Positions 3,566 to 24,044 of a DNA stretch of 64,000 bases are shown in pieces. The DNA comes from Puccinia triticina (taxonomy: Eukaryota; Basidiomycota; Pucciniomycetes; Pucciniales; Pucciniaceae). Numbering within the stretch: the first letter of the stretch is position 1; each line of letters begins with the position of its first letter. Made by a program: the position numbers and the translations under genes. The notes below the pieces were generated by a model. The model was not told where the DNA came from. It searched no databases and saw nothing but the letters and a program-made list of their open reading frames with translations. The DNA lies in the NCBI RefSeq assembly GCF_026914185.1, contig NC_070567.1, forward strand, positions 5,296,001-5,360,000. Reading direction: 5' to 3'.

Positions 3566-5315
3566 GATATTTGGCAACTGATCACATTGTGGCTGCTACA
3601 TTTGGGGGTTTTGTAGTCATTCAAGGTACAAAATGAATCTTTGAGGGCATGTGAACATTTTGGTACCAATATCATGGAAGAACTCCCATGCTGCGCTGAG
3701 ATATAGTGGCAGAAACACCAAGAAACTACCAAATTAGTAAGATTTGGCAACTGATCACATTGTGGCTGCTACATTTGGGGGTTTTGTGGTCATTCAAGGT
3801 AAACCGTGATCCGTTGAGGCCATTTGATCATTTTTGTACCAATATCATGGAAGAACTCCCATGCTGCGCTGAGATATAGTGGCAGAAACACCAAGAAACT
3901 ACCAAATTAATGATATTTGGCAACCGACCACATTGTGGCTGCTACATTTGGGGGTTTTGTGGTCATTCACTGTACCAATGAATCTCTGAGGGCATGTGAA
4001 CATTTTGGTTTCAATATCATGGAAGAACTCCCACGCTGCCCTGAGATATAGTGGCTGAAACACCAAGAAACTGCCTAATTAGTCATATTTGGCAACTGAT
4101 CACATTGTGGGTGCTACTTTTGGACGTTTTGAGGTCATTTAAGGTACTCCATGATCTCTTGAGGCCTTTTGATCATTTTTGTACCAATATCATGGAAGAA
4201 CTCTTATGCTGCGCTGAGATATATTGGCAGAAACGCCAAGGACTACCAAATTAGTGATATTTGGCAACTGATCCCATTGTGGCTGCTACATTTGGGGGTT
4301 TTGTAGTCATTTAAGGTAAACAATGAATCTTTGAGTGCATGTGAACATTTTGGTACCAATATCATGGAAGAAATCCCATGCTGCGCTGAGATATAGTGGC
4401 AGAAACACCAAGAAACTACCAAATTAGTGATATTTGGCAACTGTTCACATTGTGGCTGCTACATTTGGGGGTTTTGTGGTCATTCAAGGTACAAAATGAA
4501 TCTTTGTGGGCATGTGAACATTTTGGTACCAATATCATGGAAGAACTCCCATGCTGCGCTGAGATATAGTGGCAGAAACACCAAGAAACTACCAAATTAG
4601 TCATATTTGGCAACTGATCACATTTTGGCTGCTACGTTTGGAGGTTTTGAGGTCATTCAAGGTAAGCTATGATCCCTTGAGGCCATTTGATCATTTTTGT
4701 ACCAATATCATGGAAGAACTCCCATGCTGCGCTGAGATATAGTGGCAGAAACACCAAGAAACTACCAAATTAGTGATATTTGGCAACTGATCACATTGTG
4801 GCTGCTGCATTTAGGGGTTTTGTGGTCATTCAAGGTATACAAAGATCCCTTGAGGCCATTTGATCATTTTAGTACCAATATCATGCAAGAACTCCCACAT
4901 TGCGCTGAGATATAGTGGCAGAAACACCAAGAAACTACCAAATTAGTGATATTTGGCAACTGATCACATTGTGGCTGCTACATTTGGGGGTTTTGTGGTC
5001 ATTCAAGGTACACAATGAATCTTTGAGGGCATGTGAACATTTTGGTACCAATATCATGGAAGAACTCCCATGCTGCGCTGAGATATAGTGGCAGAAACAC
5101 CAGGAAACTACCAAATTAGTGAGATTTGGCAACTGATCACATTGCGGCTGCTACATTTGGGGGTTTTGTGGTCATTCAAGGTAAACTGTGATCCGTTGAG
5201 GCCATTTGATCATTTTTGTACCAATATCATGGAAGACTCCCATGCTGCGCTGAGATATAGTGGCAGAAAAACCGAGAAACTACCAAATTAGTCGTATTTT
5301 GGCAACAGATCACAA
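3566..5315 (+). repeat. 173-bp satellite array, forward block B
   Basis: This continues the forward satellite array after the solo LTR with the same unit length and blocks. It runs up to an orientation switch near 5310-5320, where 'ggcaacagatcacaa' is followed directly by inverted-unit sequence. Individual copies differ by scattered substitutions. No genes are supported. Confidence 0.93.
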
Positions 5316-8300
5316 CCGCAAAACGTCCAAATGTAGCAGCCACAATGTGATCAGTTGCCAGATATGACTAATTTGGTAGTTTCTTGGTGTTTCCGCCACT
5401 ATATCTCAGGGCAGTGTGGGAGTTCTTCCATAATATTGAAACCAAAATCTTCACATGCCCTCAGAGATTCATTGATACAGTGAATGACCACAAAACCCCC
5501 AAATGTAGCAGCCACAATGTGATCAGTTGCCAAATATCACTAATTTCGTAGTTTCTTGGTGTTTCTGCCACTATATCTCAGCGCAGTGTGGGAGTTCTTC
5601 CAAGATATTGGTATAAAAATGATCAAATGCCCTCAAGGGAACATTGTGTACCTTGAATGACCTCAAAACGCCCAAATCCCCTCAAGGGAACATTGCGTAC
5701 CTTGAATGACCTCAAAACGCCCAAATCTAGAATACCACTAATTTGGTAGTTTCTTGGTGTTTCTGCAGCTATATCTGAGCGCAGCGTGGGAGTTCTTCCA
5801 CTATATTGGTACCAAAATGTTCATATTCCCTCAAAGGTTCATTGTGTACCTTGAATGACCACAAAACACCCAAATGTAGCGGCCACAATGTGGTCAGTTG
5901 CCAAATATCACTAATGTGGTAGTTTCTTGGTGTTTCTGCCACTATATCTCAGCGCAGCATGGGAGTTCTTCCGTGATATTGGTACAAAAATGATCAAATG
6001 GCTTCAAGGGATCATGGTTTACCTTGAATGACCACAAAACCCCCAAATGTAGCAGCCACAATGTGATCAGTTGCCAAATATCACTAATTTGGTAGTTTCT
6101 TGGTGTTTCTGCCACTATATCTCAGCGCAGTGTGGGAGTTCTTCCATGATATTGGTACAAAAATGATCAAATGGCCTCGAGGGATCAATGTGTACCTTGA
6201 ATGACCTCAAAACGTCCAAATGTAGCAGCCACCAAGTGATCAGTTGCCAAATATCACTAATTTGGTAGTTTCTTGGTGTTTCTGCCACTATATCTCAGCG
6301 CAACATGGGAGTTCTTCCATGATATTGGTACCAAAATGTTCACATGCCCTAAAGGATTCCTTGGGTACCTTGAATGACCACAAAAACCCCAAATGGAGCA
6401 GCCACAATGTGATCAGTTGCCAAATATCACTAATTTGGCAGTTTCTTGGTGTTTCTGCCACTATATCTCAGCGCAGCATGGGAGTTCTTCCATGATATTA
6501 ATACAAAAATGATCAAATGGACTCAAGGGATCATGTTGTACCTTAAATGACCTCAAAACGTCCAAATGTAGCAGCCACAATGTGATCAGTTGCCAAATAT
6601 CACTAATTTGCTAGTTTCTTGGTGTTTCTGCCACTATATCTCAGCGCAGCATGGGAGTTCTTCCATGATATTGGTACCAAAATTTTCACATGCCCTCAAA
6701 GACTCCTTTTGTACCTTGAACGACCACAAAACCCCCAAATGTAGCAGCCACAATGTGATCAGTTGCCAAATATCACTAATTTGGTATTTTCTTGGTGTTT
6801 CTGCCACTATATCTCAGCGCACCATGGGAGTACTTCCATGATATTGGTACCAAAATGTTCACATGCCCTCAAAGACTCATTGTGTCCCTTGAATGACCAC
6901 AAAACCTCCAACTGTAGCAGCCACAATGTGATCAGTTGCCAAATATCACTAATTTGGTAGTTTCTTGGTGTTTCTGCCACTATATCTCAGCGCAGCATGG
7001 GATTTCTTCCATGATATTGGAACCAAAATGTTCACATGCCCTAAAGGATTCATTGGATACCTTGAATGACCACAAAAACCCCAAATGTAGCAGCCACAAT
7101 GTGATCAGTTGCCAAATATCACCAATGTGGTAGTTTCTTGGTGTTTCTGCCACTATATCTCAGCGCAGCATGGGAGTTCTTCCATGATATTTGTACAAAA
7201 GTGTTCATATTCCCTCAAAGGTTCATTGTGTACCTTGAATGACCACAAAACCCCGAAATGTAGCAGCCACAATGTGATCAGTTGCCAAATATCACTAATT
7301 GGCTAGTTAATTGGTGTTTCTGCCACTATATCTCAGCGCAGCATGGGAGTTATTCCATGATATTGGGACCAAAATGTTCACATGCCCTCAAAGATTTATT
7401 GTGTACCTTGAATGACCACAAAAACCCCAAATGTAGCAGTCACAATGTGATCAGTTGCCAAATATCACTAATTTGGCAGTTTCTTGGTGTTTCTGCCACT
7501 ATATCTCAGCGCAGCATGGGAGTTCTTCCATGATATTAATACAAAAATGATCAAATGGACTCAAGGGATCATGGTGTACCTTAAATGACCTCAAAACGTC
7601 CAAATGTAGCAGCCACAATGTGATCAGTTGCCAAATATCACTAATTTGCTAGTTTCTTGGTGTTTCTGCCACTATATCTCAGCGCAGCATGGGAGTTCTT
7701 CCATGATATTGGTACCAAAATGTTCACATTCCCTCAGAGATTCATTTTGTACCTTGAATGACCACAAAAACCCCAAATGTAGCAGCCACAATGTGATCAG
7801 TTGCCAAATATCACTAATTTGGTAGTTTCTTGGTGTTTCTGCCACTATATCTCAGCGCAGCATGGGATTCCTTCCATGATATTGGTACCAAAATGTTCAA
7901 ATTCCCTCAAAGGTTCATTGTGTACCTTGAATGACCACAAAACCCCCAAATGTAGCAGCCACAATGTGATCAGTTGCCAAATATCACTAATTTGGTAGTT
8001 TCTTGGTGTTTCTGCCACTATATCTCAGCACACCATGGGAGTTCTTCCATGATATTGGTACCAAAATGTTCACATGCCCTCAAAGATTTATTGTGTACCT
8101 TGAATGACCACAAAAACCCCAAATGTAGCAGCCACAATGTGATCAGTTGCCAAATATCACTAATTTGGCAGTTTCTTGGTGTTTCTGCCACTATATCTCA
8201 GCGCAGCATGGGAGTTCTTCCATGATATTGGTATAAAAATGATCAAATGGTCTCAAGGGATCATGGTGTACCTTGAATGACCTCAAAACCTCCAAATTTA

Positions 8301-10477
8301 GCAGCCACGATGTGATCAGTTGCCAAATATCACTAACTTGGTAGTTTCTTGGTGTTTCTGCCACGATATCTCAGCACACCATGGGAGTTCTTCCATGATA
8401 TTGGTACCCGAATTTTCACATGCCCTCAAAGATTCATTGGGTACCTTGAATGACCACAAAACCCCCAAATGTAGCAGCCACAATGTGATCAGTTGCCAAA
8501 TATCACTAATTTGGTAGTTTCTTGGTGTTTCTGCCACTATATCTCAGGGCAGCATGGGAGTTCTTCCATGATATTAGTACAAAAATGATCAAATGGACTC
8601 AAGGGATCATGGTGTACCTTAAATGACCTCAAAACGTCCAAATGTAGCAGCGACAATGTGATCAGTTGCCAAATATCACTAATTTGCCAGTTTCTTGGTG
8701 TTTCTGCCACTATATCTCAGCGCAGCATGGGAGTTCTTCCATGATATTTCTACAAAAATGTTCATATTCCCTCAAAGGTTCATTGTGTACCTTGAATGAC
8801 CACAAAACCCCCAAATGTAGCAGCCACAATGTGATCAGTTGCCAAATATCACTAATTGGCTAGTTAATTGGTGTTTCTGCCACTATATCTCAGCGCAGCA
8901 TGGGAGTTCTTCCATGATATTGGTACCAAAATGTTCACATGCCCTCAAAGATTTATTGTGTACCTTGAATGACCACAAAAACCCCAAATGTAGCAGCCAC
9001 AATGTGATCAGTTGCCAAATATCACTAATTTGGCAGTTTCTTGGTGTTTCTGCCACTATATCTCAGCGCAGCATGGGAGTTCTTCCATGATATTGGTATA
9101 AAAATGATCAAATGGTCTCAAGGGATCATGGTGTACCTTGAATGACCTCAAAACCTCCAAATTTAGCAGCCACAATGTGATCAGTTGCCAAATATGACTA
9201 ATTTGGCAGTTTCTTGGTGTTTCTGCCATTATATCTCAGCGCAGCGTGGAAGTTCTTCCATGATATTGGTAACAAAATGTTCACATTCCCTCAGAGATTC
9301 ATTTTGTACCTTGAATGACCACAAAACCCCCAAATGTAGCAGCCACAATGTGATCAGTTGCCAAATATCACTAATTTGGTAGTTTCTTGGTGTTTCTGCC
9401 ACTATATCTCAGCGCAGCATGGGAGTTCTTCCATGATATTGGTACCAAAATGTTCACATTCCCTCAAAGGTTCATTGTGTACCTTGAATGACCACAAAAA
9501 CCCCAAATGTAGCAGCCACAATGTGATCAGTTGCCAAATATCACTAATTTGGCAGTTTCTTGGTGTTTCTGCCACTATATCTCAGCGCAGCATGGGATTT
9601 TCTCCATGATATTGGTATAAAAATGATCAAATGGTCTCAAGGGATCATGGTGTACCTTGAATGACCTCAAAACCTCCCAATTTAGCAGCCACAATGTGAT
9701 CAGTTGCCAAATATGACTAATTTGGTAGTTTCTTGGTGTTTCTGCCATTATATCTCAGCGCAGCGCGGGAGTTCTTCCATGCTATTGGTACCAAAATGTT
9801 TACATTCCCTCAGAGATTCATTTTGTACCTTGAATGACCACGAAACCCCCAAATGTAGCAGCCACAATGTGATCAGTTGCCAAATATCACTAATTTGGTA
9901 GTTTCTTGGTGTTTCTGCCACTATATCTCAGCGCAGCATGGGAGTTCTTCCATGATATTGGTACCAAAATGTTCCCATTCCCTCAAAGGTTCATTGTGTA
10001 CCTTGAATGACCACAAAACCCCCAAATGTAGCAGCCACAATGTGATCAGTTGCCAAATATCACTAATTTGGTAGTTTCTTGGTGTTTCTGCCATTATATC
10101 TCAGCGCAGCATGGGAGTTCTTCCATGATATTGGTACAAAAATGATCAAATGGCATCAAGGGATCCTTGTTTACCTTGAATGACCTCAAAACCTTCAAAT
10201 GTAGCAGCCACAATGTGATCAGTTGCCAAATATGACTAATTTGGTAGTTTCTTGGTGTTTCTGCCACTATATCTCAGCGCAGCATGGGAGTTCTTCCATG
10301 ATATTGGTACAAAAATGATCAAATGGCCTCAAGGGATCATGCTGTACCTTGAATGACCTCAAAAGGTCCAAATGTAGCAGCCACAATATGATCAGTTGCC
10401 AAATATCACTGATTTGGTAGTTTCCTGGTGTTTCTCCCACTATATCTCAGTGCTGCGTGGGAGTTCTTCCATGATAT
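5316..10477 (-). repeat. 173-bp satellite array, inverted block
   Basis: This is the reverse complement of the same satellite. Equivalent positions recur at exactly 173-bp steps (for example 6590, 6763, 6936, 7109 and 7282). Longer periods are visible: the pair at 9185/9358 is closely repeated at 9704/9877 (519 bp, trimer), and the unit pair at 7109/7282 recurs at 8666/8839 (1557 bp, nine units). Near 5640-5740 a copy is damaged: about 63 bp around 'ccctcaagggaacattg' is duplicated and part of a unit is missing. The array ends sharply at 'gttcttccatgatat'. Confidence 0.95.
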
Positions 10478-10921
10478 AAGACACCTTACTCAAATCTGGT
10501 ACAAATGTTAAATCAATCCCAGGCCTAGTAGAAATTTATGATATTGGATATGATGAGTCATATATACAAGCCATTAAATATGAACAAAATTGATGTAGCA
10601 TGATATATTGAGACTGATTGTTTTTTTTTCTTTTTTGGAAAGTAGATTTCAACACTTCTGCAAGGTTCAAGTGACAATAATTCATGCCTCCCCATTCCTC
10701 CTCCCCCCTTCCCCTCCCTGCCTGACTTAACAGACTATTTTTTCTCAGGAATAATTCATATGAGTATGTAAAAATGACCTATTTGATCTGGCAACAAAAT
10801 GAAGCTTTTACTATGGTTGAAAACTAAGAAAGGAGGAAATCAAGAGAAAGAGAGATGATAGAAGGGTTATAATGTTGCAGGAAGGAAACAAACTAAAGGG
10901 AAATTTCAAAAAAAAAAAAAA
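10478..10921. other. Unannotated AT-rich spacer
   Basis: Non-satellite, AT-rich sequence between the satellite and the foldback element. It contains a T run near 10620, a C-rich stretch near 10700 and an A run just before 10922. I see no gene or repeat boundary here apart from the end of the satellite. Confidence 0.5.
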
Positions 10922-15695: not shown

Positions 15696-15702
15696 ATTGA
15701 GT

Positions 15703-16110
15703 CAACACTGGGTCAGCTACGCTAACAATAGCTGTAGCGCAGCGTAGTGTTAGCTTTTTCAGCTACGCTACACCAAAGTTACTGTTAGCGCTCAAAATTG
15801 GCAGCTAACGCTTTTTTTTTCAAAAAAAAAAAAAAAAAACGTTAGCGTAGTGTTAGCTGACAAGAGGAGAAGGAAGTTAACGCTTAAAAAAATTGTTGTT
15901 TTCTGAATGTTAGCGGTGTTAGCGACTCAGAAAGTTACGCTATGTATCAGCTACGCTATATATCAGCTACGCTGAGTATTAACATAGTGATTATATCAGC
16001 TATGCTGAGTATTAGCCTAGCAATTATATCCGCTACGCTAAGTATTAGCGTAACTTTTGCTAAATCTGAGCGTAACTTGCGCTAAATCTTAGTGTAACTT
16101 GCACTAACTC
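15703..16110. repeat. Left subterminal repeats of the hAT element
   Basis: Dense short direct and inverted copies of motifs such as CAGCTACGCT, GTTAGCGTAG and TTAGCG, interrupted by an A/T run near 15810-15840. Subterminal repeats like these are transposase-binding sites in hAT elements. The matching zone is at the right end of the element. Confidence 0.75.
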
Positions 16111-16435
16111 TCAGTGAAACTTAGATAGGCAAATCTACCCAATCAATATTTTCAGGATACCAAACATGAAACCGGCACAATCAATTACTTGAAAAAAAAT
16201 ATTCAAAAAAAAACAAGTAATTGGGTGTGCAGGGGAGTAAATATGAACATAGAAAGGGAATTTTTTTGTGGGTGGGGGATATGGAAAAAGATGAAATAAG
16301 ACTAGTCGCAACATCAATTGATTTTTGTTTTAATATTTTACATAATTTTTTTAACTTTTTATGTGATCGTTTTTGGTAGGTAAGAAAAACTTGATTCAGA
16401 GGTGCAAAGCAGCAAGAAAAAATATTTGAAAAAGA

Positions 16436-19400
16436 TTACTTTTGTTTTTCACAAAATTCGGTATAAGCAGAAACGATACTTTGGGCTTTGGAAAACTTTC
16501 CTGTAACTTGTATGCCTTCTTTGAGCCACAGATGACTACTAACGCATCGCTCAATAGTACGGGGTATTAAGCTACCTCGCCCACTTGAGCAGACATCGGC
16601 AGCGGAAGAAAATATACGCTCAGCCGCACATGAAGATGCTGAGCAAGCTAGGTAGTCCTTCGCCAAGGATGCAAGAACAGGATAAGTTGATGAATGATCC
16701 TGTAGGTTATGAAACATGAGTGTCATTTCCAAATTGAAATGAGTTTATTACAAAAAACACACCTTCCACCATACCAACAGCGCTTTTGGATCTTTTGCCC
16801 TCGGTCCCGGTAGCTGATCCATGTTTTTGATGTAAACTTCAAGCTCTTTACTTTCTTCGACAGCTGAAGCGCTGAACAACTCAAAGATATCATCTTGATC
16901 AACAGTTGGATTCATTTTCTTTGAGTTGTTTTCATCTTCAGCTTTCTGTTTTTGTAGCATACTGTCTCGCTTGAAAAAGTGTCGCTCCAATAATTTCTTT
17001 GCCTCGTCAGCTTTTTCAGGCCAGCAATGCGTAAAAAGATTGAAGCGAAATGTTGGATGGAGAATCGTTGCCATGACAAGAGTTTCACATTCAAGCGCCT
17101 CGTCCTGGTAGGTCTTGAGCTTTTCAATCATTTTAATATACATCGGATGTAACGCATCTCCTCGGTCGGATCCTTCCTCTTTCTTTTTCAAATCGCTAAT
17201 TGTTTGATAATAATTTGGCAACACAAATGCACCTGTAGGCCCATCACCCTCCATCAATTTGGTGAGACGGTTGAAAGGCTGATAAAAAAAATAAGCTTCT
17301 TGAACAAAGTCATATATACGTCTTTTGAATTTTTTTTTCTCACTTCTAACTCCTCGTTTAATTCTTTAATCATCAACCATTCTTTATTTGAGAACTGAAT
17401 TTCCTTAAAGTGACCAAACTTCTTGCGATTTTCTTTACGACTGGATTTGGAAATTTGATCTTGGTATTTAACATACTCATCGTGGAGCATTGAATTGATA
17501 ACCTACAGTCAAAGCTATCAGTGATAAATTTTAATTGTAAAGCTAATTGAAGCGCAAATACTTACTTCTCTTGCCTCATAGGCACGCTGTCGGCTTTGAT
17601 ATTTTATGTTCCAGCGAATTCCGTAGCCTGCAATCAGACCCTTCAGGTTTTTTCCTGCTGCACAACGGTCAAATTCCTGTCTCCATACACACGAGCCAGT
17701 TATCTTTTTGACTACAAAGTCCAACTATTTTCTTATAGTTCAGTCAGTACGCAAAAAATAAAAGAAAAATACAAGATAGAAGATCGTAAACCTACTGCTT
17801 TAGTCAAATCATGCAACTCATTAGACTCATTCCTGTTTGTAGCAGATTTACTCTTATTTCCAGCATTCCTACTTCTTCTCGCCTTATCTTCTCTCTCAAC
17901 CGGTTCAGAATATTCATCGTCCTCTACCACGTCATCCTCATCCTCGTTATAAATATCGCTATCCGTATTGTCACCAGCATCGCTTTCCTCTACCAATCCA
18001 TCTGCAGCATCTTCATCCTCCTCTTCCAAGATTCGCTCCAGATTATCTGAGTAGGGGAAAGCGCCAAGAAAAGATTTCTTGATCTTTGGTGGTGGTGGGG
18101 CTTCAATACCTAATTCGTTCAAACCAGCATTAACAACCAATGCCATCTTGTGGCAAAAGCACTTAATGTGCATCGTATTGTAGTCCCATTCGATTTCATC
18201 GGTTCCTTCAAGGAGACGCAATTGGGATTGCATTGTTGAAGCCATTGTACCGTTGTTTGAGCCCGAATCTGTAGTCTGGCATAGCATGTATTTACAAGAA
18301 AAAGAAAACCAATTAGATTTTGGATATCTACCGTATAAGCAAGAAAACTTATCTTTCCCTGAAGTTGATGCTTCTTCAAAACGTTGATTACTGGCTCAGC
18401 CAACAAGCTCCCTCTGTGGTGACAAGCAACAAGTTTGAGACTCAGATGGAGTACGTTGTAGTTCCAATTGTTATCAACAAAAGAAACTGAAGCGCCGATA
18501 AATCCAAAACGGTTCCCTTTGGTTGTCCAAACATCATGTATAAGATTGAACTTGCTGTTAGTATCCTGATGATTGATAAATCATTTCAACAAGATAAGTC
18601 AGTAATTCTCCCAAAAAAATCAAATTAAATTACACACTTTTACACGTTTGATCATTGCAGCTTGTAAGTCCAAGTACACTGTTCTAGCCGAATCGGCCGC
18701 CCATCTTCGCTTAAACAAGTTGGCACTGGCTTGACAGTAGTGAAATGCTGCTCGCAGATAAGCGTCCTCAACTCGAGTCCAAGGGATTGCTTGACGTAAC
18801 AACCACAGAGATAAGATCTGATTGAGTACAACATTATTGAACTTTTCAACTGGGGCAAAATGGTGAGTGATTGTTCCAGGTTTTCCACCAGCCTTTTTCA
18901 GCCTGTCTTCTTCAAGCGTGGTCGGAGGCAGCTTGGCACCAGCAGCAATAGCATCACGACGTTTTGGGCATCCTTCCGAAATCCTTCCACCCTGACGAGA
19001 CCCATCACGATGCGCACAAAGATTTGAAAAGCTGCTTTGAGAAACTCGCACTTCTTTTTTACACCATTTACAGCTGTATGTCTGTGGTGGTTTATCAGAA
19101 GGCTTCAAATAAAAAAGAAAGATGATGAGTTATAGCATCATTCATAAAAAAAATTTCTTAGGACTTACATCATCCTTGCGACGGAATGGATCAGAAAAAA
19201 AATCCTTGGCATCGTCAAACTCAGGGTTGCGCCTTTTCCGTTTTGGTTGTGCCTTTGAATTTTCTTCATCGGAGTCTTGGATATAATCAGTAGCCTGGGA
19301 AGATTGAGCTTTGGAGTTGGCAGGATTTCTTTGAGAGCAACTTGAATTGTTTGGTTTCTTTCCATTTCGTTTGGTGGCAATAGGTGTGTCTTGGGAGATC

Positions 19401-19630
19401 GAATCTGAATCAAACTCTGAGGGTGCCTTTCGTTTTCTGGGTTGAGTTGTACTTGATTCTGTGGCAGTTCTATTGGACAAAAGGGGCTGGGTGATTGAAC
19501 AACGTGAATCTGGTGAAGGGTTGATCATTCCAGATCTCCTGATAGGGGTGGTGACTCTTGAGGATCGACAAACTTGACCCTCGGAAGCATCGCTTGTGTA
19601 TCCAGCTTGTTTGGTAGATTGAGCTGGCAT
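16436..19630 (-). CDS. hAT-family transposase (907 aa, 8 exons)
   Basis: Eight exons join in phase 0 with GT-AG introns and no stop: 19630-19169, 19102-18638, 18550-18332, 18275-17796, 17724-17566, 17502-17344, 17278-16763 and 16699-16436. The protein would cut and paste its own element. In order it has a low-complexity Ser/Lys N-terminus (1-154); a BED-type zinc finger with CKWCKKEV and a later His/Cys pair (about 160-215); the first catalytic Asp in HDVWTTKGN; the second Asp in TTDSGSNN; CFCHKMAL; a long acidic insertion (about 440-500); GLIAGYGIRWNIKYQSRQRA; and a C-terminal hAT dimerisation domain with DYLACSASSCAAERIFSSA. The length is within the range for hAT. It looks intact, so the element could be autonomous. 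Confidence 0.88.
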
Positions 19631-20630
19631 GAATTTTCAGAACGGAGTGATGGTTTTAAGAAAAAGTAGGACTTGGAGGAGCTGAATTTGTTTGTGGTGA
19701 ATGGTATGTATTGGACAGCAAACAACTTGCGAGTTTGGGAAAAAAATGTATGCAAGAGAACTCTGCATAGCTTGGACTGACCGGTGACCCGTAGTTTTTT
19801 GCGGGCGCTCAAATTAATATCTGTGACCCACACCAGAAAATATAGTCTGATCTGAAGGCTCAATTTCACCTCACAGCCATGTATCTGTTTGCATGGCTCA
19901 AACCAATGCCTTATTTAATTCCAAATGTGCACTCTTCTCATTAATCTTTTGCTGGTCCATTGATATGAATTCTTGATTATAATTCTTCTATAAATTATGT
20001 GGTTATTGTAACTGGCCTTCCTAGCTTAGTCTAATCTATCATGATTCTATTGCAAAGATATTTTGAAAGTAAATTTTCTTTGAAACTTTTAGAATTTTAA
20101 GATTCAATTTCTGTGCACACACATTCAACAAATCAAACCTCTGGCAGTTAAAACTTGATTTCTTGGCTAATTCATATGCTACTATTTATTGAATGAAAAT
20201 GGTCTTTTGAATTCATGTTCTGATTGATATGAATAAAATCCACTATGTATGAATATTCATTCTAATATTTCTGAGTTTCACTATGCTCTATCCAGTCAAT
20301 TCAGATCAATTCAAGTCCTGAATCTAGTTGTTTGATTGTATATCCTTTGTAATCATGATAATTACTAGTTTTTAAGAGTTAATTGCTTAGATGGCTATTT
20401 GTATGCTAATAGAGGTCATGGCTGCTTTTACGCCACATTCTCATTTGTGTACTATTTCATTGAATCAATTCCAACTCAGAAAACATGCAAAATCAAGGCT
20501 CTCTCTCATAACTCAAGTCACCCTTTTCCTGAATTGTTGATACATATATATTTTCTTGAGGCTCAAATTGTGTTGAAAGAGGATTTTGTAATTAAATCAG
20601 AACATGGTTGGGGATAACAAGTGTAAAATC
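19631..20630. other. AT-rich spacer between the two hAT-element genes
   Basis: About 1 kb of AT-rich sequence upstream of the transposase and downstream of the oxygenase. I see no supported gene; it presumably contains the transposase promoter. Confidence 0.4.
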
Positions 20631-21725
20631 TTAGAAAGAGAAGAAAAGCGTAAAGTAAAACAAAATTGTGACTGAAGTAGCTATTAAAGTACTTCTACCC
20701 ATACTACGAAACATATAAAAAAAATGATTGCCAAAATAATGGGCTATGCTAGTGTAAAAACCCTTCATATATTTATCACAAGTATGTGCTAAAGCAGAGT
20801 TTATTTGTATGGACATTCCAAGACGAGTAAATTGAGAGCTCTTAGAGTGAGGCATAGTGCAGTGAGTATATTTATTCGCTTGCCATATCATCTTGACAAT
20901 CCCATGCTGATGATCAAAATCAATACCAATACGGTGATCAGGGAAAATAAAAGGCCCCGATTTGATGTCATACTTGGAAGAGTCTACTAAATTGTAATCA
21001 GAAGTGCAAGTTGGAAGAAACAAGACGAAAGCAAATTGAGAGATATCCTCGGTGTCTTTGTGCGGAGGATTAAAAAAACCATTGGTAGTAAACGTAATAT
21101 GAGGAGTGCAGGTAGACTCTTGTGGAAGTTCACCGTAAGCAAGGTCTGGAAAGGAGGGGATATTATACTTCTTCATGAGGTCTTGATTGTCTTGGAATGG
21201 AGTGTGAGCAAGATCCTTGAAGAGATTTCCGATTATTTGACCAACTTTAGAAGACTTGACGTAATGTTCATCAAAGGCCCGCATTTCAGTTTCATTGAAT
21301 GCCTTGATGTATCGGCCTACAATCTGGTCCTCATCATATGACTTCCTCCAGCCAATGGCCCACATGAGACCACCCCAAACTCGAGAACAAGAGTGAACAC
21401 CATTGATAAAACGTTTAGACTTATGAAGAAAATTGGAAACGTAGTTGAGATCTTTGATTTGAGAACTAGTGAGCTCTTCGACGGGTGTGAATTCGACAAT
21501 GGCTATCACAGACTTTTTGTCAAGAGGATCCTTGATCACGTTGAGTCCGGAGGTGAGAAATCGGTATGATCTGACTTGTTTGTGTGCGGATGCGATTTCG
21601 GCGGCAGTTGGAATACGGGTTGGTTTGTCATTGACCCAAGGGATGTTTGGATAGAGGTTGTGAGGTTCGTATTTGACCCGATGCCAAATCACGGACCCGT
21701 CCTTCCACTCAAGTTGTTCCTGCAT
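20631..21725 (-). CDS. Tet-like 2OG-Fe(II) oxygenase (TET/JBP type)
   Basis: A predicted iron- and 2-oxoglutarate-dependent dioxygenase of the Tet-like family common in rust fungi; TET/JBP enzymes oxidise methylated bases in DNA. The open frame is 364 aa from the ATG at 21725. The iron-binding His-x-Asp is in PPHKDTED, the distal His in NKYTHCTMP, and the 2-oxoglutarate-binding Arg probably in SQFTRLGMSIQ. VWGGLMWAIGWRKS and FAFVLFLPTCTSDYN are further family-like blocks. A basic Lys/Ser-rich stretch is readable in frame just upstream, so an extra 5' exon is likely and the true start is uncertain. The last 40 residues are hydrophobic. It lies within the TIRs of the hAT element and reads the same way as its transposase. 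The residues needed for catalysis look present. Substrate and activity are not known. Confidence 0.8.
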   Translation of the reverse strand: MQEQLEWKDGSVIWHRVKYEPHNLYPNIPWVNDKPTRIPTAAEIASAHKQVRSYRFLTSGLNVIKDPLDKKSVIAIVEFTPVEELTSSQIKDLNYVSNFLHKSKRFINGVHSCSRVWGGLMWAIGWRKSYDEDQIVGRYIKAFNETEMRAFDEHYVKSSKVGQIIGNLFKDLAHTPFQDNQDLMKKYNIPSFPDLAYGELPQESTCTPHITFTTNGFFNPPHKDTEDISQFAFVLFLPTCTSDYNLVDSSKYDIKSGPFIFPDHRIGIDFDHQHGIVKMIWQANKYTHCTMPHSKSSQFTRLGMSIQINSALAHTCDKYMKGFYTSIAHYFGNHFFYMFRSMGRSTLIATSVTILFYFTLFFSF

Positions 21726-22139
21726 CAAAGCGTTGTTTTCCCTTGATTGCTTTGCCTTATTTCTTTGGCAAGATGCTTTACTGCTCTTATTTTTATGACT
21801 AGAAGAATAATTTCAAGTCCCCGGGAGAATGTCCGCCCGAGATCAATCATTTCATCAACATAGTCATTATAATAATTTGCAAGACAGTCAACCAACAAAG
21901 AAAAAGGCAAAAGTGACAAGAGAAATATTGATCAGTATCAATGTCCCTCTGAATAGATGTGAGTCCATACCTTTTCTTTTTTCCCATGATGACACACTCC
22001 AATGATCTCGCTGTTTGATACTGTTACCAAGTGAAATTGGAGTGGTAAGCACCACGCTCTTGTGAAGAAATTTATTGAATTTGTGAACAGCCCAAAGGCT
22101 TGACTTACGTCTGGAAGTTGATTAATTGGCTGCTTAGTC

Positions 22140-22650
22140 GTTGCAGAGCGTCTGAAAGGATTGGCGGGGTTTCTGAATGGGTTGGGGGCGTCTTAACGGG
22201 TGGGCGAGCGTCTGAGCGGGTCGGCGACCGTCTGAGCGGGTCGGTGAGCGTCTGAGCCGGTCGGCGAGCGTCTGAGCGGATCGGCGCGCGTCTGAATGGG
22301 TCGGGGGCGTCTGAACGGGTCGGCGAGCGTTTAAACGGGTCGGCGAGCGTCTGAATGGGCCGGTGTGAGTCTGAACGTATTGGTGGAGCATTTAAAAAGG
22401 TGTGGTGTCAACAACAAGGAACACGATCGCAGAGCTGCAAAGAGGAAAAATAGCAGCGAGGAGGGTTGGCATACCTCTTGAAGTCAATTGGGGTTAGCGG
22501 GCGTCTGAACGGGTTGGAGGACGTCTAAACAGGTCGGAGGGCGTCTGAACGGGTCGGCAGGCGTCTGAAAGGGTGGGTGGGGCTTCTGAAAGGGTCGGTG
22601 GAGTGTCTAAAAGGTTGGCGGGGTGTCAGCAAGCAGAAACAGGCAACCCT
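22140..22650. repeat. GC-rich minisatellite (GCGTCTGAxxGGGTCGG)
   Basis: Two clusters, about 22140-22400 and 22495-22640, of a variable unit near 'gagcgtctgagcgggtcggc', about 20-30 bp long. Looser copies follow to about 22870. The sequence is far more GC-rich than its AT-rich surroundings and lies inside the hAT element between the oxygenase and the right end. No gene is supported. Confidence 0.8.
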
Positions 22651-23411
22651 AGAGCTGCAATGGGCAAATGAGCAGCGCGGATGGTCGGCTTACCTCTTGA
22701 TCAAGTAAGCTGGACGGTTGCTCGGCGCTTGCGCAGATTTTGTAAGCCTATCGGCAGGGTGTCACCAAGGGGCATGCAAGCGATTCAACTTCCAAGAGAG
22801 AACGTACCTTTGTAAATCAATTGGTCGGTTTCTGCGTGCTTCCCAGGCGTCTAAACAAATCGGAAGCGCACACCATCAGCATTAAGAGAAAGGTGCAATT
22901 TCCAATGCAGTTCACAGGGTTGACTTACCTCTGTGAGTCAATCGGTTAGGCGCTGGGCACGTAAAGAGTGTCAGTACCAATGATCAGGTTGTCAGAAAGC
23001 AGAAAAAGGCCCCTTGGCAGCTCTGCAAGCTGCAAAGGGGCACAAGGGCAGTTCGGAGGTTGGCTTACTTTTTTAATTTAATCGCTCGGCTGCTGGGCAC
23101 TCAAAAAGCGTCTGAACAGTTGCGAGGTCGTGAAGTGATAGTAGAGCAGTGAGCATTTGAGGGGAAAAGATGCTATAGGGGCTTGGGATTGGTGAATAAA
23201 TACTAATTTGTGGATTGCGCTGAGCAGTTAGCGCATATGCAAGAGTTGATTGAAAGGGGCAATGCGAAAAGAGCCAAGAGGTGTATTTGGATACCAACTC
23301 TGAAACGGGTCTGGGAACATGCCACGGCAGCCCAAGCATCCACGGGGTTGCATACAATAATACCAGATGAGAGCGTATGGATAACCCATTCTCACGGCCG
23401 CTGTAAACTCA

Positions 23412-23495
23412 GGCCTAGCGCAGTGGTAAACACGTGCGATATCCCGGTCCTGTATCAGGCACTCGTGTGGGTTCGATCCCCAAAAGGGACTGAGC
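23412..23495 (+). repeat. tRNA-derived SINE-like head (A and B boxes)
   Basis: The stretch has an A-box-like 'tagcgcagtggtaaacac' and a B-box 'ggttcgatccc', spaced as in RNA polymerase III internal promoters. A T-arm of the form tggg-ttcgat-cccca can be drawn. The acceptor ends do not pair well, so it is more likely a tRNA-derived SINE head or tRNA relic than a working tRNA. It sits inside the hAT element. Confidence 0.45.
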
Positions 23496-23559
23496 TGCCC
23501 TAGTTTGGCGTGCTTTTATTTCATTCTGCACGGATCCCATCTCCTGTCACACTAGCGCA

Positions 23560-23888
23560 GCGGGAAAAGCTGCACGTTACGCTAACTGTTAGCGTAAACT
23601 CAGCTACGCTGTTTAGCAATTAAAAGGTTGTTAGCGATGATTAAACTACGCTGTGTAGGGATCACAAACGTGTTAGCGGTGAGAAAACTACGCTGACAGC
23701 TATTTTAGCGGTGATTAGTCCAAGCTAGCGCAAGAAAAAATTGAGAGGCAAAATGATTCCGCTACGCTGCTGTTAGTTTAACTGAAATTAACTGTAACTA
23801 ACACTATGGAGATCTTGGGTGACAATCTCGTCGCTACGCTGAGGATTATCAGGCAAATAGTGTAGCTTAGCGTAGCGACCCAGTGTTG
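23560..23888. repeat. Right subterminal repeats of the hAT element
   Basis: Repeated CAGCTACGCT, GTTAGCG, ACTACGCTG and CGCTACGCTG motifs run up to the terminal inverted repeat. They mirror the left zone in inverted orientation. Confidence 0.75.
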
Positions 23889-24044
23889 ATTGAGTCAGGC
23901 GAAAGCGTGGCGGTCGTGGTGGCAGCGGCAGTATCGATGTCAAGGGTGCATGGGCCTTCATAGGTGTGATCGGGCGAGGTCTTGAGAGTGCGTCCTTATA
24001 TAAAGTAGGTGGGTTGTGCTTGTTCAACCCCCAGAGCGTCCTCT

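What the first reader, a model, noticed from the sequence alone, without database searches (positions are those of the whole stretch)
15703..23888. A hAT transposon carrying a TET/JBP-like DNA-modifying oxygenase
Matching TIRs (CAACACTGGGTC...) and identical outer flanks ATTGAGT enclose an intact-looking hAT transposase and a Tet-like 2OG-Fe(II) oxygenase on the same strand. Fungal TET/JBP genes are known to travel with KDZ-type transposons (work of Iyer and colleagues), so a hAT carrier would be a different pairing. An element carrying an enzyme that could oxidise methylated cytosine might counter silencing of its own DNA; that part is inference.
Basis: partly seen in the sequence, partly recalled or inferred. 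Interest (0 to 1): 0.87.

Follow-up and report, generated by a model that had tools for sequence, protein, structure and literature searches.

The report
Jumping gene carrying TET-like DNA oxidase
A rust-fungus jumping gene of the hAT type carries, besides its transposition enzyme, an enzyme that looks able to oxidise methylated DNA; this pairing was published in 2025, but the copies here are still mutated like copies without the enzyme, and the enzyme ends in an unexpected membrane-anchor-like tail.

Summary
Observation confirmed. Window 15703-23888 is a complete 8186-bp hAT element with a spliced 912-aa transposase and a 394-aa TET-like oxygenase, both on the minus strand. Seven complete family copies plus one sister-family copy carry both genes between matching ends with perfect 7-bp target duplications. 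For 2 of 3 insertions tested, the genome holds matching empty sites. Nesting or a host gene is thereby excluded. Contig length and an annotated homolog point to Puccinia triticina Pt15, chromosome 10A. The supposed novelty fails: Kojima 2025 (PMC12730594) described TET-carrying 'hAT7' elements with 7-bp duplications in six Puccinia species, P. triticina included. What I add: (1) TET sits beside 12 of 14 close hATs and 0 of 127 more distant ones. (2) It is under purifying selection, dN/dS about 0.14. (3) Young TET+ copies suffer TCG C>T hypermutation no less than TET- hATs, which argues against simple protection of the element's own DNA. (4) The 9 hAT-linked TETs examined have a hydrophobic C-terminal tail; 7 of 7 other TETs examined lack it. 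Enzyme activity is inferred, not shown.

The parts
15703..23888 (.). Complete TET+ hAT7 transposon, 8186 bp
   Evidence: TIRs and 7-bp duplication; four further copies 99.29-99.39% identical pairwise
15696..15702 (.). Left target-site duplication ATTGAGT
23889..23895 (.). Right target-site duplication ATTGAGT
15703..16180 (+). Left terminal and subterminal region with repeated AGCTACGCTA-like motifs
23551..23888 (-). Right terminal and subterminal region, inverted relative to the left
16436..19630 (-). hAT transposase gene, 8 exons, 912 aa; exons 19169-19630, 18638-19102, 18332-18565, 17796-18275, 17566-17724, 17344-17502, 16763-17278, 16436-16699 (splice sites predicted by me)
   Evidence: PF05699 2e-14; Hermes match
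20631..21987 (-). TET/JBP-like 2OG-Fe(II) oxygenase gene, 394 aa; exons 21971-21987 and 20631-21798 (short first exon predicted by me)
   Evidence: PF20515 1.3e-65; TET-like fold
20631..20690 (-). Codons of the hydrophobic C-terminal tail (residues 375-394 and stop)
   Evidence: 19-residue mean hydropathy 1.83, next best elsewhere 0.86
22141..22620 (.). CpG-rich minisatellite block upstream of the oxygenase gene, free of C>T changes in the five young copies
   Evidence: 0 of 480 CpG site-copies

Best explanation
This is an autonomous two-gene cut-and-paste transposon of the TET+ hAT7 kind. Its hAT transposase acts on the TIRs and inserts the whole unit with a 7-bp target duplication. The TET-like oxygenase is a long-standing, selected cargo of one hAT clade. 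Most likely it oxidises 5-methylcytosine and so relieves transcriptional silencing of the element family while the transposase is made; it does not keep inserted copies free of methylation-linked C>T mutation. Shown: the unit moves as one piece, both genes travel together, both are under purifying selection, the oxygenase has a TET-type fold, and its copies are hypermutated. Inferred: enzyme activity, substrate and the anti-silencing role (about 0.6 for anti-silencing in some form).
Against: No activity data. Three relatives break the pairing: transposase without detected TET at C4:3938220 and C8:195004, and TET without detected transposase in the fetched 3.75 kb at C5:578389. Only 1 of 5 near-identical copies has both frames open. 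dS is 2.5-fold higher in TET than in transposase between the same elements (0.64-0.65 vs 0.25-0.26), so the two halves do not have one simple shared history. TCG hypermutation is not reduced.
Confidence: 0.85

Rival explanations
1. The oxygenase protects the element's own copies from C>T hypermutation (the Puccinia TCG process named in Kojima 2025), acting locally on the DNA that encodes it.
For: It is the published speculation. The CpG-rich block upstream of TET has 0 of 480 CpG site-copies mutated, against 74 of 1538 in the genes.
Against: TCG C>T per site-copy is 0.110 in TET+ genes, against 0.096, 0.079 and 0.053 in three TET- hAT families; relative to all other substitutions 74 against 37 pooled. 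Other CpG C>T is higher, not lower, in TET+ (21/1054 vs 9/1341, p 0.005, post hoc).
Confidence: 0.1
2. The TET gene is a nested insertion or a host gene caught between TIRs by chance.
For: Many other TET-like loci exist in this genome (107 matches, a lower bound).
Against: Same place and strand in 8 of 8 complete copies of two families about 55% identical in TET protein; precise empty sites of the whole unit; clade-restricted linkage.
Confidence: 0.02
3. The oxygenase makes another base change (CMD1-like hypermodification, or 6-methyladenine oxidation) with a regulatory role, not 5mC removal.
Confidence: 0.25

Closest known systems
TET+ hAT7 DNA transposons of Puccinia (Kojima 2025, PMC12730594)
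   Same: hAT transposase, 7-bp target duplications, TET/JBP gene inside the TIRs; the gene order, TET upstream of transposase in the same orientation, is reported there for hAT7-1_PCor, hAT7-2_PCor and hAT7-1_PHor; P. triticina is among the six species
   Different: Nothing that I could test. Whether this exact family is one of the twenty published ones could not be checked, because the supplement with the sequences was not readable here. The paper's main text holds no occurrence of membrane, hydrophobic, MITE or selection.
KDZ transposons with TET/JBP genes (Iyer et al. 2014, not held here; known to me by recall and through Kojima's introduction)
   Same: TET/JBP gene beside a transposase in fungi
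   Different: The transposase here is hAT by Pfam and Hermes matches; target duplication 7 bp
CMD1, TET2, NgTET1 and CcTET DNA oxygenases
   Same: Double-stranded beta-helix fold with HxD
   Different: No sequence match in the PDB; a hydrophobic C-terminal tail lies outside the aligned core

Membership tests
TET+ hAT7 transposons | hAT-type transposase | tested here: met
   PF05699 2e-14 and Hermes transposase 1.2e-05
TET+ hAT7 transposons | 7-bp target-site duplication | tested here: met
   8 of 8 complete copies
TET+ hAT7 transposons | TET/JBP gene between the TIRs | tested here: met
TET+ hAT7 transposons | Transposase falls in the published hAT7 clade | not tested
   No tree with the published or Repbase sequences was built
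TET+ hAT7 transposons | Identity with a published P. triticina family | not testable with these tools
hAT with the usual 8-bp duplication | 8-bp target-site duplication | tested here: not met
   7 bp in 8 of 8 copies; hence filed under hAT7, not canonical hAT
TET/JBP dioxygenases | TET-type double-stranded beta-helix fold | tested here: met
TET/JBP dioxygenases | Iron-binding HxD and distal H, and 2-oxoglutarate-binding R | tested here: met
   H252/D254 (nearly invariant), H318 and R331 in the 394-aa numbering; which residues are the distal H and the R is my reading from the pattern, not from a liganded model
TET/JBP dioxygenases | Oxidises 5-methylcytosine in DNA | not testable with these tools
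   Needs an assay or base-resolution modification data
KDZ transposons | KDZ-type transposase | tested here: inconclusive
   One search lists hAT families and no KDZ family for this transposase; whether the library holds a KDZ model was not checked

The most novel reading that the evidence does not exclude
The hAT7-borne TET enzymes are tail-anchored membrane proteins, perhaps of the inner nuclear membrane: a basic N-terminus, a TET core and a hydrophobic C-terminal segment that drifts in sequence but stays hydrophobic. They would then act on silenced chromatin at the nuclear edge, which would be a new way of placing a DNA-demethylating enzyme.
Probability: 0.4. Interest if true: 0.7.

Novelty: already known. 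Interest (0 to 1): 0.42.

Why it matters
The pairing itself is published. The use of this locus is that it makes the open question, what transposon-borne TET enzymes do, more testable. A set of five 99.3%-identical TET+ copies with TET- hAT controls in one genome shows that hypermutation still hits TET+ copies. If the hydrophobic tail is a true membrane anchor, the enzyme's place of action would need rethinking.

Tried and rejected
Nested or host TET gene: rejected. Frameshift in the A-run near 17330: first suspected, then rejected because the run lies in a predicted intron. Empty site for the window copy: none found; the joined 300-base flanks matched only the two flanks themselves. tRNA-like stretch near 23410-23490: ARAGORN found no tRNA in the window. 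PDB sequence matches for the oxygenase: none. Projecting the window's transposase exons on the C16b copy gave a meaningless reading because of an insert; that row was dropped, and its exons were compared one by one, where one stop was seen in exon 1. The hAT and TET lists are capped (150 of 342 and 105 of 214 candidates scored), so counts of elements are lower bounds and 'TET-' means no listed TET within 20 kb. Literature on a tail-anchored TET or on P. triticina methylation: searches failed by time-out, so I do not claim that the tail is unreported. Searches that ran: 0 papers; 2; 4; 1. Homolog tails: of 51 proteins, 23 lack the motif that marks the tail start and 2 have tails too short to score; they were dropped before the count of 26.

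Full report
What is there. The window is part of G000 contig C10, 7,045,429 bases. A protein identical to the oxygenase over 75% of the query, P0002, is recorded as PtA15_10A524 of Puccinia triticina on a contig of the same length, so the window is most likely P. triticina isolate Pt15, chromosome 10A (the isolate and chromosome are read from the locus tag). The element runs from 15703 to 23888, 8186 bp, with TIRs beginning CAACACTGGGTC and the 7-bp duplication ATTGAGT.

Genes. The transposase reads open through 8 exons, 912 aa. It matches PF05699 (2e-14) and Hermes transposase (1.2e-05). The single RNase-H exon matches PF14372 just above its cut-off, the spliced protein just below it. The oxygenase, 394 aa in two exons, matches PF20515 at 1.3e-65. 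Splice sites are my predictions; in the four near-identical copies the internal boundaries keep GT and AG.

Copies. Five copies on C10, C4, C16, C6 and C11 are 99.29-99.39% identical in all ten pairs. Two more, C16:1360463-1370175 and C2:8944580-8957560, are about 78-89% identical by DNA segment; C16b carries a nested 477-bp short copy with its own 7-bp duplication, and the middle 4.3 kb of the C2 copy were not fetched. All 7 have perfect 7-bp duplications. A sister family member, C8:7230400-7238525, has TIRs matching at 11 of 14 positions and the perfect duplication CTCAATT. So 8 of 8 complete copies whose ends I read have 7-bp duplications and both genes. C4:3938220 has the left end and transposase but no TET detected. 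Of the five near-identical copies, 1 has both frames open by my exon model; the others carry a stop or a shifted frame in one gene or both.

It moves as one unit. With the element and one duplication removed from the C16 insertion, the joined flanks match C16:487428-487727 at 100% over 300 of 300 bases. The joined flanks of the C11 insertion match 40 scored places, the best at 97% over 300. The window's own site has no empty relative in this genome.

Cargo of one hAT clade. Of 141 hAT matches compared (of 150 listed), the 14 with 56% identity or more to the window's second exon region have a TET within 2.0-2.9 kb on the same strand in 12 cases. The 127 with 50% or less have none within 5 kb; the nearest is 8.3 kb away. 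The exceptions are C4:3938220 and C8:195004; 4.1 kb beside the latter showed no TET. A TET at C5:578389 had no transposase exon in the 3.75 kb fetched beside it.

Selection and a patchwork history. Against C16b and C2, dN/dS is 0.143 and 0.148 for TET and 0.195 and 0.184 for the transposase. dS, however, is 0.64-0.65 in TET and 0.25-0.26 in the transposase. Non-coding ends also differ: 0.115-0.118 divergence at the left and about 0.20 at the right, and 22.0-23.6 kb has no match in these copies. Either the right half was exchanged between subfamilies or the halves evolve at different rates; I favour exchange, as inference. C>T hypermutation inflates such estimates, but leaving out CpG transitions the left 3.9 kb (mostly transposase) differs by 0.065-0.068 and TET by 0.126-0.127.

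Hypermutation. Among the five young copies, 90 of 145 substitutions against the majority base are C>T at CpG, 62 of these at TCG. In the genes, TCG C>T is 53/484 site-copies, other CpG 21/1054, all remaining substitutions 40/26885. Three TET- hAT families give TCG 31/324, 15/190 and 6/113. Pooled TET- values are TCG 52/627, other CpG 9/1341, remaining 55/24612; TCG rates do not differ (p 0.15), and other CpG changes are more frequent in TET+ (p 0.005, a test chosen after seeing the data). A further TET family of unidentified carrier gives TCG 30/234. So carrying TET does not spare the copies. Controls are 1.5-1.6-kb slices with 9, 4 and 3 copies. An unexplained contrast: the CpG-rich block 22141-22620 has 0 of 480 CpG site-copies changed, against 74 of 1538 in the genes (p 1.8e-9), while its other substitutions are 1 of 2400, not significantly fewer. 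Gene conversion in the repeat, or an unmethylated island, could explain it.

Short non-autonomous copies. The 12-base terminus occurs 537 times (275 + 262) in the genome. Of the first 20 listed close pairs, 19 have perfect 7-bp duplications; four of these share one duplication, so they are not all independent insertions. Their CpG C>T rate is 36/2579, against 16/2614 for non-CpG C>T, so hypermutation is weak there. That they are moved by this transposase is inference.

The tail. The window oxygenase ends in a hydrophobic stretch (19-residue mean hydropathy 1.83 at residue 376; next best elsewhere 0.86), predicted as part of a long helix, 352-388. All 9 hAT-linked TET loci examined have such a tail (C10, C4, C6, C16b, two on C2, C8, C18, C3), as does C5; by the same scan 1.63-2.13. 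The C16 copy, the second C2:3913990 locus and the frame-shifted C11 copy were not scored. Among 26 homologs with a scorable tail, 23 reach 1.6, and in 25 of 26 the tail exceeds the rest of the protein. Seven other TETs of this genome, chosen from the list, lack it: -1.47 to 0.30. Homologs share ancestry, so these are not independent events, and their carriers are unknown.

Known work. Kojima 2025 (PMC12730594; I saw the outline and abstract, sections 1, 2, 3.1.2, 3.4, 4 and the figure legends, and passages; not the supplement or the figures) describes twenty TET+ hAT7 families with 7-bp duplications from six Puccinia species including P. triticina, and proposes that transposon TETs counter methylation and C>T hypermutation. 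The kind is therefore already known. Iyer et al. 2014 is not held and is cited from recall and through Kojima. In Sci Rep 2019 (PMC6416283) I saw two passages; its only TET/JBP mention is that citation.

Noticed in passing
window 4242-10528: A 173-bp tandem satellite array (28 copies of the 300-nt reference in register, spacing 173) with an inverted block at 4242-5236.
   Followed up: no
window 22141-22620: CpG-rich 20-bp minisatellite upstream of the oxygenase gene: 0 of 480 CpG site-copies changed in five copies whose genes are strongly hypermutated.
   Followed up: partly
P0002 (PtA15_10A524), window about 20900-22400: The public gene model reads the minisatellite as coding and stops before the distal histidine, arginine and tail, so the annotated protein looks catalytically incomplete although the genomic frame is open.
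   Followed up: partly
genome-wide; L046-L065: A swarm of 385-485-bp CpG-rich elements (CpG observed/expected 1.77) with the same TIRs; 19 of 20 sampled have perfect 7-bp duplications.
   Followed up: partly
L079-L085: TETs outside the hAT clade end in mostly hydrophilic tails; at least L079, L080 and L084 are rich in lysine or arginine at the end, unlike the hydrophobic tails of hAT-linked TETs.
   Followed up: partly
window element vs C16:1360463-1370175 and C2:8944580-8957560: TET half diverged about 2.5 times more at synonymous sites than the transposase half, suggesting exchange of the TET half between hAT7 subfamilies.
   Followed up: partly
five TET+ copies vs three TET- hAT families: C>T at CpG sites other than TCG is more frequent in TET+ genes (21/1054 vs 9/1341); post hoc and unexplained.
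   Followed up: partly
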